From: Sordariomycetes sp. S80-01Y
Lineage: Eukaryota > Ascomycota > Sordariomycetes
NCBI GenBank assembly: GCA_037042185.1
Contig: JAXQJY010000030.1
Location: forward strand, 1,860,001-1,924,000
DNA: 64,000 bases
Direction: 5' to 3'
Positions 61,302-64,000 of this stretch are shown here, one piece after another. The position numbers were made by a program, and so were the translations under genes. Under the pieces are notes generated by a model. The model ran no database searches and was not told the DNA's origin. It worked only from the letters and a program-made list of their open reading frames with translations. Within the stretch, counting starts at the first letter, position 1; each line of letters begins with the position of its first letter.

Positions 61302-64000
61302 CTATCTCGACACGCCGCTACCAAATACGTCGTCCACCCTGGCCCTGCGCTCCCAGACAATGACATCATCGCTTCTACGCTTGAAATAAAGTATCCGGTG
61401 CTGTGGGATAAACTCTTCGTCCGTCTGCTCGCTCTTCCACAGCTCAAGCGCCTTTTCGCGCGTGCCAACGAAGCGATCCTCGTAGCCAATAATGTAGTCG
61501 CTGCTGTCCAGGGCCGCGTCCCATCTGATGCGGTTCATGACGTCCTTTGCTGTGCGAAACTTGCCAGGCACCGAAACGTTCTCGCTGATGATGCCGCCGC
61601 GCTGCCTCAGCTGTCGCGCCTCATCATCATCGTCGTCGTCGTCCTGGCCCTGCTCGTCCTCGTCATCGTCCTCGGGCATCTCCTCGTCGTCTGACATGCC
61701 GTGCTCCCCGAGCGAGTCTCCGGGATGGTAGCGATCGATGCTGAGCGCCGAAACTTCCGCCCGCCGGACCACTTCCGCGCTCATCCAGCAGCTGTCCGCG
61801 TCGTAGTACCTATCGTCGCCGTGGATGCGATTCTCAAACTGCCGCAGGACAGTCTGGAGCGAACCCTCCGCCAGCTTAGCGTCCTCGGTGGAGCGATGCT
61901 CTCTGCTTGGGTCGCTCTGCCACGAGAGACCAATGAGGTAGCACCCGTGGCAGCTGGGCCCGGCCTCGACCTCATCACTGCCTGGATTAGCAGCTTCGGC
62001 CGTGAATCTCTGCGGCCAGATGCGGGCTGCGAGAGATGGTACCTTTCGGTCCAAGTCTAGGATGGGGGTCAATCAAATTCTTCTTCGGCTAGAAGGAAGA
62101 CTTACCGATAAGCAACGTGACACATCTTGATTCGACCCATCCGACAAATTTAGCCCCTGCCGTGGAGGACGATCCCCAATAGTGAACGTTGACTTTGGCA
62201 AAGCTCTTGTAGCCGCTCAGGAAGTCCTCAACACCAGAAGTGTTCTGCCTGTTGCCATCAGTCGTGCTGGGGCCTAGGAAGTAATCTATAGAAACTTTCT
62301 GTTTAGTGATATTGTCGTTGGCGTGGCGAAGCTCTTCTGCTAGCGTCGTTACAGTAGGCACAGAGGCACTCGCCGCGGTGTTGAGACTAGGCCCGTGCCA
62401 GCCGAGCAGACACAGGGGCTCACGGAATGTGCGGTGATATTTCAGCGATTCATGAAAGAAGGGATCGAATACCGCATGTGTTTTCCAGTCGAGACTGGCG
62501 TAGTGTTCAAAGAAGGTGGCAATGACTTCCTCGACGCTTACAGTCCCTAGTTGGAGGGCCAAGGTCTTGCAGATGGGCACCAGCATGACAGTAATATGAA
62601 TGCTCCCCAACAGGCCGAATTTGGCCCCGTACAGACCCCGATTCCTGGCCCACGTGCTGAGGAACAGGTGGACGATGGTGAACTGCGCCAGATCGGGCAC
62701 TGAGCGTTGGAGGTACGACAGGTCCCGCAGCGGCTTCAGCTTGGACAGCACCGAGGGAGGGAGAGCAAAGGCGTCATCATCCGATGGGCGCTTCAAGACG
62801 TCCGGAAATCTGCAGCTATAGTCAGCCTATCCTTGACGTGTCTGGGGGCGGGAACTTACTCGTCCAACAGCGACGGCGCGCTGCAGTACTGCAGGTCAAA
62901 TTTGATGCCCTGCACGTCTAGTTCCAACATCGTTCCGGACGCGGCCTTGACGCGCCTGATGATAGCTATGCCGTAGGCTGCCGCCTTGCGCAGGCGCTGT
63001 ATCGCTAGGGAGAAGAACGTCCGGGAGCTGATCTCCCCGACGCAGAGGCAGTCCACGTCGGATGCTGGCGTCCACAGGCCCATGGCAAACGAACCCACTG
63101 GCAACAGCAACAGACGCGGACCCGCGCGGGGGTCGTACTGTGTTTGCTCCTTGGAGGTGCACTGGAGGATTAGTTCGAGAAGCTGGATGGCGTTCTTTCG
63201 TCTCTGGCCGTCGTCGGCGCTGGGCAAGATTCCGCGGATACGCAGCTCCTCTTTGACCTCGTCGAAGTCGCCGAGGACGTTCTCGCTGCGACACGCGACT
63301 ATTTCCGCTTTTGGCAGGGCTCGTGCATCCTCTGCGTTGGAAGACGAAGCCTCAAATAGACACCTGATACCCCAGTGATCACTTGGGGCTTCGTCCGACT
63401 GGTCAGCGTCAGCCTTGTCCGAGGGCAGCCCGAACATGTTGAACCGCCTAGGCCGAAGCCTACAGTGGCTATTGACAAGAATTCTGTCGTACCGCTGAGG
63501 GCGATTATTGAGCCCGCTCCCGAGCATCCTTGCTGCAAGCTTGTTGACCAAGGGATCAAACGTCGCGCCCTGCTCGCCTTCATACGCGTCCAACAGGCTG
63601 CGTGGCTTCCCGGCCGGCTCAGAAGACTCTCCCGATAGTACCTTTGACGCGATCCAGGCATCCTGCAGCCCGCTCTCCGCTAGCATGGAGTTAAAGTTGC
63701 GGCAGTAGTCGTAAGACCGCGCCGAGAGGTCCGTCTGCCTGCGAGCCGTGTCAAGCGTGTACACCGAAGTTGCGAGGTTGAAATCCCCGGCGATGATCCA
63801 AGGATGGCCTTCGTATCTCAAAGACAAGTGCCTGAGGAGGCCTTGAATCTCGGCCTGCTTAGCATTAACCGCGCCGTCGTTCAGTCCCTGACTCAAGTGG
63901 CAGGCTGCGAGCACCAGGGGCTTCCCGGCATCTGCTCCGCAGCCGGTGAGTGATGGGAAAGTTGCCACGACAGAAGCCTTGTGTTTTCGGTTGCTGCTCA
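61302..64000 (-). CDS. multidomain RNA-end processing protein: EEP nuclease + poly(A)-polymerase-like NTase + MJ1316 (5' part off window)
   Basis: The visible 865 residues are the C-terminal part; coding continues past the right edge. Exons from the edge to 62860, 62809-62106 and 62056-61302. Domains in order: (1) endonuclease/exonuclease/phosphatase fold with HLSQGLND, GDFN, YDRILVN and SDHWG, the catalytic set intact; (2) nucleotidyltransferase with GSFAMGLWTPASDVD and the third acidic site in FDLQY, followed by a poly(A)-polymerase-like central region (FLSTWARNRGLYGAKFGLLG); (3) a linker with VNVHYWG and WVESR, resembling the poly(A)-polymerase RNA-binding region; (4) an acidic run (EDDDEDEQGQDDDDDDD); (5) an MJ1316/DUF504 domain (RIRWDAALDSSDYIIGYEDR, ALELW, IPQHRILYFKR, DDVFGSG). 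MJ1316 has been predicted to recognise or process RNA ends with cyclic phosphate. I infer an RNA repair or end-modification role; the substrate is unknown. Confidence 0.88.

What the first reader, a model, noticed from the sequence alone, without database searches (positions are those of the whole stretch)
61302..64000. Single polypeptide joining EEP phosphatase/nuclease, poly(A)-polymerase-like NTase and MJ1316 RNA-end domain
The catalytic motifs of two different RNA/phosphate enzymes are intact in one chain (GDFN, DRI and SDH for EEP; GSFAMGL..SDVD plus FDLQY for the nucleotidyltransferase), followed by an MJ1316 domain. Comparative-genomics work has predicted MJ1316 as an RNA cyclic-phosphate end recognition or processing domain in RNA-repair contexts. 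The layout suggests an enzyme that trims or dephosphorylates damaged 3' ends, then extends them, with MJ1316 as the end-sensing part. To my knowledge the fungal protein is uncharacterised. More domains, for example a 2H phosphoesterase, could lie upstream, off the window.
Basis: partly seen in the sequence, partly recalled or inferred. Interest (0 to 1): 0.78.

Follow-up and report, generated by a model that had tools for sequence, protein, structure and literature searches.

The report
Fungal RNA-end repair-type fusion enzyme
The end of this window encodes part of one eukaryotic (probably fungal) protein that joins a nuclease-type domain, a poly(A)-polymerase-like domain and a predicted RNA-end-recognition domain; the same three domains occur together in bacterial proteins that often sit beside RNA ligase and kinase genes, so it is probably an enzyme that repairs or re-tails broken RNA ends.

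Summary
On the minus strand, 64000 to 61302, three exons and two short GT-AG introns encode at least 865 residues: the C-terminal half of an EEP domain, a poly(A)-polymerase-like module and a C-terminal MJ1316 domain. Similarity to poly(A) polymerase crosses both introns, the EEP shares exon 1 with the nucleotidyltransferase, and MJ1316 shares exon 3 with the end of the polymerase module: one gene.

New evidence: bacterial proteins carry MJ1316, a TDP2-like EEP, a 2H phosphoesterase and a PAP-like nucleotidyltransferase in one chain (80 of 82 EEP-anchored chains; found with MJ1316-based patterns). A ligase-kinase gene abuts 29 of 30 actinobacterial loci with enough upstream DNA; ligase and kinase genes precede 7 of 17 cyanobacterial ones; none was found in 28 others. 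Window-free profiles of these proteins match the window protein at 8e-16 to 3e-26.

RNA-end repair is the best-supported role; the reaction order is inference. A 2H domain may lie upstream, off the window. The polymerase pocket lacks residues nearly invariant in the bacterial set, so tailing activity is uncertain. MJ1316 fusions to RNA-repair domains are already in print.

The parts
61302..64000 (-). whole visible part of the gene; runs off the window at 64000 (5' end of the gene missing)
62860..64000 (-). exon 1: EEP C-terminal half plus nucleotidyltransferase, one open frame
62810..62859 (-). intron 1, GTAAGT...GCAG, 50 nt; read through, it gives an in-frame TAA at once
   Evidence: PAP similarity continues across it
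62106..62809 (-). exon 2: PAP central domain
62057..62105 (-). intron 2, GTAAGT...CTAG, 49 nt
   Evidence: PAP similarity continues across it
61302..62056 (-). exon 3: end of the PAP module, acidic linker, MJ1316, stop codon
63336..63998 (-). EEP (endonuclease/exonuclease/phosphatase) domain, C-terminal half, residues 1-221; GDFN, TFDPLVNKLAA, RYDRI, SDH
   Evidence: Pfam 0.0024, under cut-off; family profile 4e-16; column counts
62860..63308 (-). poly(A)-polymerase-like nucleotidyltransferase palm, about residues 231-379; D314, D316, D368
62461..62679 (-). PAP central domain match, residues 424-496; S431 stands in a K/R column, I452 in a W column
   Evidence: (under cut-off)
61830..62223 (-). 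PAP RNA-binding-like region, about residues 576-690 (interrupted by intron 2)
   Evidence: weak Pfam 0.14; PDB alignment to 687
61614..61698 (-). acidic linker rich in D and E
   Evidence: read directly
61347..61556 (-). MJ1316 domain, residues 782-851; IPxHR, VWxR and a following D kept
   Evidence: Pfam 4.1e-19; alignment of 50 rows, window included

Best explanation
The gene encodes an RNA-end remodelling enzyme of a eukaryote, most likely a fungus, homologous domain by domain to bacterial proteins of the type MJ1316-EEP-2H-PAP. MJ1316 is predicted to recognise broken RNA ends carrying a 2',3'-cyclic phosphate. A phosphoesterase step (a 2H domain if one lies upstream, and/or the EEP) cleans the end. 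The PAP-like module then adds nucleotides to the cleaned 3' end, either restoring lost bases before sealing by a separate ligase or re-tailing the RNA. Shown here: one gene; the three domains; homology of each to the bacterial proteins; frequent neighbourhood of those with RNA ligase and kinase in actinobacteria and part of the cyanobacteria. Inferred: the substrate, the order of steps, and that the polymerase module is active. From the literature: MJ1316 as an end-recognition domain.
For: Domains and single gene. tblastn of the window MJ1316 against plasmids finds 5 records; the best, from Calothrix, encodes MJ1316, EEP, 2H and PAP in one chain. BLAST aligns the window to that protein in MJ1316 (45% of 76), PAP (26% of 209) and EEP (25% of 212). 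In genome contigs 339 of 375 pattern-matched stretches are relatives; 79 loci were kept. 80 of 82 EEP-anchored chains have MJ1316-EEP-2H-PAP. The ligase-kinase gene abuts 29 of 30 actinobacterial loci with at least 1.5 kb upstream; ligase and kinase genes precede 7 of 17 cyanobacterial loci (Pfam of one such pair). Window-free profiles match the window at 4e-16 (EEP), 3e-26 (PAP), 8e-16 (MJ1316). Of columns at least 95% conserved in 79 bacterial rows, the window keeps 20 of the 22 visible ones in EEP, 6 of 7 in PAP and 9 of 13 in MJ1316. [quoted passage not shown] repair by RNA ligases with nucleotidyltransferases restoring missing bases, and 2H cleavage of the cyclic phosphate to a 2'-phosphate (PMC9503650, in a section on phage RNA repair).
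Against: No ligase, kinase or 2H match among window frames of 40 or more residues. The bacterial domain order differs. No ligase was found nearby in any of 28 loci outside actinobacteria and cyanobacteria (one with only 1.1 kb upstream) nor in 10 of 17 cyanobacterial loci, so coupling to ligation is not general. The window polymerase has S431 where 79 of 79 bacterial rows have K or R, and I452 where 78 of 79 have W. MJ1316 departs at 4 of 13 conserved columns, including W to Q in IPWHR, and EEP at Q37 and K47. The MJ1316 model has no PDB fold match at E <= 0.001, so its role rests on published prediction. The EEP is TDP2-like, and TDP2 acts on 5' ends. The window protein is a very long branch among the relatives.
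Confidence: 0.6

Rival explanations
1. A quality-control tailing enzyme: it cleans cleaved RNA 3' ends and adds a tail that sends the RNA to decay, not to ligation.
For: PAP-like module and end-recognition domain without a ligase match in the window; 0 of 28 loci outside actinobacteria and cyanobacteria have the ligase found nearby.
Against: The ligase-kinase gene beside 29 of 30 actinobacterial and the ligase and kinase genes beside 7 of 17 cyanobacterial loci point to sealing, at least there. A ligase need not be adjacent in a eukaryote.
Confidence: 0.2
2. The polymerase module has become an RNA-binding scaffold and only the EEP and MJ1316 parts work.
For: S431 instead of K/R (79 of 79) and I452 instead of W (78 of 79); Pfam PAP_central 7e-4 in the window against 1.7e-29 in the Calothrix relative.
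Against: The GS motif and the three catalytic aspartates D314, D316 and D368 are kept; 6 of 7 highly conserved PAP columns are kept.
Confidence: 0.22
3. The EEP is a TDP2-like phosphodiesterase for 5' adducts, so the protein handles RNA (or DNA) 5' ends as well as, or instead of, 3' phosphates.
For: TDP2 is the best PDB match of the EEP family by profile (1.7e-22; the profile includes the window row) and by fold of a bacterial relative (1.4e-19, TM 0.72/0.79).
Against: Fusion to a 3'-end polymerase and a predicted cyclic-phosphate recognition domain; fold similarity does not fix the substrate; the window's own EEP, half of which is missing, was not modelled.
Confidence: 0.2
4. Gene-model artefact: adjacent genes wrongly joined.
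For: No transcript data were available.
Against: EEP and NTase share one intronless frame; MJ1316 shares exon 3 with the end of the PAP module; PAP similarity crosses both introns.
Confidence: 0.03

Closest known systems
Bacterial MJ1316-EEP-2H-PAP proteins (e.g. Calothrix BAY66805.1, annotated only as RNA 2',3'-cyclic phosphodiesterase)
   Same: MJ1316, EEP and PAP domains in one chain, each significantly similar to the window protein
   Different: MJ1316 is N-terminal and a 2H domain lies between EEP and PAP; a ligase-kinase is often adjacent. In the window MJ1316 is C-terminal and no 2H lies between EEP and PAP
MJ1316 fusions to RNA-repair domains (Burroughs and Aravind, NAR 2016: not held, nothing read; cited in PMC6514570, passages read)
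   Same: MJ1316 joined to RNA-repair domains in eukaryotes
   Different: Could not check whether this EEP-PAP-MJ1316 layout or the bacterial four-domain protein is listed there
Canonical poly(A) polymerase (PDB 4lt6, 1f5a, 1fa0)
   Same: Palm, central and RNA-binding-like regions in the same order; catalytic aspartates
   Different: The central-domain lysine and GGxSW residues are not kept; fused to EEP and MJ1316
TDP2 (tyrosyl-DNA phosphodiesterase 2)
   Same: Best solved relative of the EEP family by profile and by fold
   Different: Compared mainly through bacterial relatives; the window holds only half of the domain
Pnkp1-Rnl-Hen1 bacterial RNA repair complex (PMC4411300, abstract and section list seen)
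   Same: A multi-enzyme complex that repairs ribotoxin-cleaved RNA
   Different: The abstract names no MJ1316, EEP or PAP component

Membership tests
Bacterial MJ1316-EEP-2H-PAP proteins | MJ1316 domain | tested here: met
   Pfam 4.1e-19; profile 7.6e-16; 9 of 13 highly conserved columns kept
Bacterial MJ1316-EEP-2H-PAP proteins | EEP domain of the same family | tested here: met
   profile 4e-16; 20 of 22 visible highly conserved columns kept; N-terminal half not visible
Bacterial MJ1316-EEP-2H-PAP proteins | PAP-like nucleotidyltransferase | tested here: met
   profile 3.2e-26 across both introns
Bacterial MJ1316-EEP-2H-PAP proteins | 2H phosphoesterase in the same chain | tested here: inconclusive
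   no match in window frames, none between EEP and PAP; the upstream part of the gene is off the window
Bacterial MJ1316-EEP-2H-PAP proteins | domain order MJ1316-EEP-2H-PAP | tested here: not met
   window order EEP-PAP-MJ1316; bacterial order in 80 of 82 chains. So it is called a relative, not a member of that architecture
Bacterial MJ1316-EEP-2H-PAP proteins | RNA ligase and kinase next door | tested here: not met
   no ligase or kinase match in window frames, but the window ends inside this gene, so only one side was seen; not general in bacteria either
Canonical poly(A) polymerase | GS motif and three catalytic aspartates | tested here: met
   G302 S303 D314 D316 D368
Canonical poly(A) polymerase | central-domain lysine (K228 in bovine numbering, recalled) and GGxSW | tested here: not met
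   S431 and GSIHI in the window against solved PAPs and bacterial rows
ANGEL2/CCR4-type EEP | closest similarity to CCR4/ANGEL2 among solved EEPs | tested here: not met
   TDP2 1.7e-22; CCR4-like 2.4e-7; nocturnin 3.2e-7; ANGEL2 5.2e-4
TDP2-type EEP | 5'-tyrosyl phosphodiesterase activity | not testable with these tools
   needs an assay

The most novel reading that the evidence does not exclude
A eukaryotic all-in-one RNA-end repair enzyme that shares ancestry with bacterial ligase-linked repair operons: end recognition, end cleaning and nucleotide addition kept in one rearranged polypeptide, probably with a 2H domain at its unseen N-terminus, relying on a separate ligase for sealing.
Probability: 0.4. 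Interest if true: 0.75.

Novelty: new variant of a known kind. Interest (0 to 1): 0.55.

Why it matters
Organisms that make or meet ribotoxins must mend cut RNAs, and how fungi do so outside tRNA splicing is little known (general knowledge, not tested here). One protein with recognition, cleaning and nucleotide-adding domains would be a tractable entry point, and the bacterial relatives beside ligase and kinase genes give a testable reaction scheme. The link also adds genomic-context evidence for MJ1316, whose end-recognition role is, as far as I saw, a prediction.

Tried and rejected
Tried without result: own-genome search (no genome held). EEP part and MJ1316 part alone against PDB sequences (none; three hits at E about 1, taken as chance). 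Phages (none). Viral contigs with four queries (none). Fold search of the MJ1316 model (none at E <= 0.001). Literature search for HD-Pnk with RNA repair (none held).

Trees of the three domains together. FastTree put the window with L044, L046 and L055 (local support 0.94; with L044 alone 0.49). IQ-TREE on 73 of the 80 rows (near-identical ones dropped) put it with L046 and L055 inside a group with support 67. The window branch is about 1.9 against a median of 0.16, so I draw no donor lineage from this; the window MJ1316 is most like that of L055 (50% identity).

RNA_ligase was found over its cut-off in 20 of 21 genomes searched, but it is a common family (also in 6 of 14 control genomes), so this is not used as support.

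Rejected: an ANGEL2-like reading of the EEP (my own lead), since TDP2 is much closer. Alignments A2 and A7 pair bacterial 2H residues with the window linker; those columns were ignored. A3 and A5 misaligned PAP or EEP rows and were not used.

Bias to know: the two peptide patterns of the genome scan both lie in the MJ1316 domain and one asks for it at the start of the chain, so N-terminal MJ1316 is favoured by the search. Proportions describe this set of best matches. The ligase and kinase profiles were seeded from L002 and L003, which are two of the 29 positive actinobacterial loci.

Full report
What is there. The minus strand from 64000 to 61302 holds one gene, cut at its 5' end by the window edge. 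Exons 64000-62860, 62809-62106 and 62056-61302 join in frame over introns of 50 and 49 nt with GT and AG ends, giving 865 residues and a stop. Of ten other long frames scanned, seven have Pfam matches to ordinary eukaryotic-type proteins (such as MCM3-type, Exo70, CAP, MutL-type, ETF alpha) and three have none.

Domains. Pfam gives MJ1316 at 4.1e-19 and NTP_transf_2 at 2.2e-4 over their cut-offs, and PAP_central (7e-4), Exo_endo_phos (2.4e-3) and PAP_RNA-bind (0.14) under them. Solved poly(A) polymerases match at up to 6.7e-11, with alignments crossing both introns. The EEP shares exon 1 with the nucleotidyltransferase, and MJ1316 shares exon 3 with the end of the polymerase module, so a wrongly joined gene model is very unlikely.

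Relatives. The window MJ1316 domain matched 5 plasmid records. The Calothrix protein found this way has MJ1316, EEP, 2H and PAP in one chain, as do the Nonomuraea and one Embleya protein that I scanned; the gene just upstream in the last two has an RNA ligase domain and a kinase-type P-loop domain. A fourth record, from Streptomyces, has only a short frame with MJ1316 and part of 2H; the fifth (a second Embleya) was not opened. A scan of genome contigs (84,980 species genomes) with the alignment of the three gave 375 pattern matches, 339 of them relatives; the best 80 were kept as 79 loci. Among 82 chains found by their EEP domain (Calothrix counted from both collections, two chains in L039), 80 have the order MJ1316-EEP-2H-PAP. 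The two others are L045, whose frame closes about 200 nt before the contig end, and L066, whose PAP part lies in another frame. Both scan patterns lie in MJ1316, so this set favours N-terminal MJ1316.

Neighbours. Ligase and kinase profiles, seeded from L002 and L003, were run on frames of 90 or more residues in all loci. Of 32 actinobacterial loci 30 have at least 1.5 kb upstream; in 29 (L002 and L003 among them) a ligase-kinase gene ends between 13 nt inside and 51 nt before the four-domain gene, and L083 is the exception. In the two short ones the kinase part is seen. Of 17 cyanobacterial loci with EEP and at least 2 kb upstream, 7 have a ligase gene and then a kinase gene directly upstream; in L009 these are RNA_ligase (1.5e-36) and HD plus AAA_33. 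Two further cyanobacterial loci have only a kinase frame on the other strand. In the other 28 loci, mostly myxobacterial, no ligase was found (one has only 1.1 kb upstream); L028 and L033 have an Omp85-type gene there.

Tie to the window. BLAST aligns the spliced window protein to the Calothrix protein in MJ1316 (45% identity), PAP (26%) and EEP (25%). Profiles built without the window match it at 7.6e-16, 3.2e-26 and 4e-16. Of columns at least 95% conserved in 79 bacterial rows, the window keeps 20 of 22 visible EEP columns (exceptions Q37, K47), 6 of 7 PAP columns (exception I452 for W) and 9 of 13 MJ1316 columns (exceptions M788, Q825, Q833, E850). The kept EEP residues include G, D and N of GDFN, N152 and A155 of the TFDPxxNxLAA stretch, R169, D171 and SDH. 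Against a working polymerase, S431 stands where 79 of 79 have K or R.

EEP type. The family profile (58 rows, window included) finds TDP2 best (1.7e-22), then Beta-hemolysin (1.9e-14), CCR4-like (2.4e-7), nocturnin (3.2e-7) and ANGEL2 (5.2e-4). A model of the Calothrix EEP (pLDDT 93.2) is also closest to TDP2 (1.4e-19). ANGEL2 hydrolyses 2',3'-cyclic phosphates (passages of PMC12265940); TDP2 removes VPg from picornavirus RNA (listing and start of abstract of PMC7077319). The EEP reaction stays open.

MJ1316. The window domain was modelled with 49 bacterial rows (pLDDT 74.8, about 89 in most of the core; one helix and four strands). No PDB fold matched at E <= 0.001. The end-recognition role comes from PMC6514570 (passages) and the Pfam name. 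In 14 control genomes MJ1316 is found only in two archaea.

How it most likely works. In the bacterial systems a broken end with 2',3'-cyclic phosphate would be recognised by MJ1316, opened by 2H, processed by EEP, refilled or extended by the PAP module, and sealed after 5' phosphorylation by the ligase-kinase. PMC9503650 (passages, in a section on phage RNA repair) describes the 2H step and nucleotide refilling with ligases as repair themes. The window protein has the recognition, EEP and PAP parts. Whether it has a 2H part, whether its PAP part is active, and whether its product is sealed or degraded are open.

Novelty. MJ1316 fusions to RNA-repair domains in eukaryotes are in print. Searches of the held library for MJ1316, DUF504, PF04457 and LENG9 listed no title on this layout, but listings were cut (30 of 43 and 10 of 68 shown), of the papers listed there only PMC6514570 was opened, and the main paper is not held. 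I call it a new variant of a known kind, with the caution that it may already be catalogued.

Noticed in passing
L039:4668-11267: Pyxidicoccus fallax carries two four-domain MJ1316-EEP-2H-PAP genes in tandem.
   Followed up: no
L005 and L024: Calothrix brevissima NIES-22 has a plasmid copy and a chromosomal copy; the chromosomal copy's frame is split within the PAP part.
   Followed up: no
L004:3818-4513: A Streptomyces plasmid holds a short frame with MJ1316 and part of 2H only, with transposase genes about 2 kb away: a likely remnant.
   Followed up: no
L009:5826-7845: Cyanobacterial RNA ligase followed by a gene with HD and AAA_33 kinase-type domains, just upstream of the four-domain gene.
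   Followed up: partly
window:35803-59884: Genes by Pfam: MutL-type repair protein, ETF alpha, SWIRM-associated Myb protein, CAP, pfkB kinase, MCM3-type helicase, Exo70.
   Followed up: no
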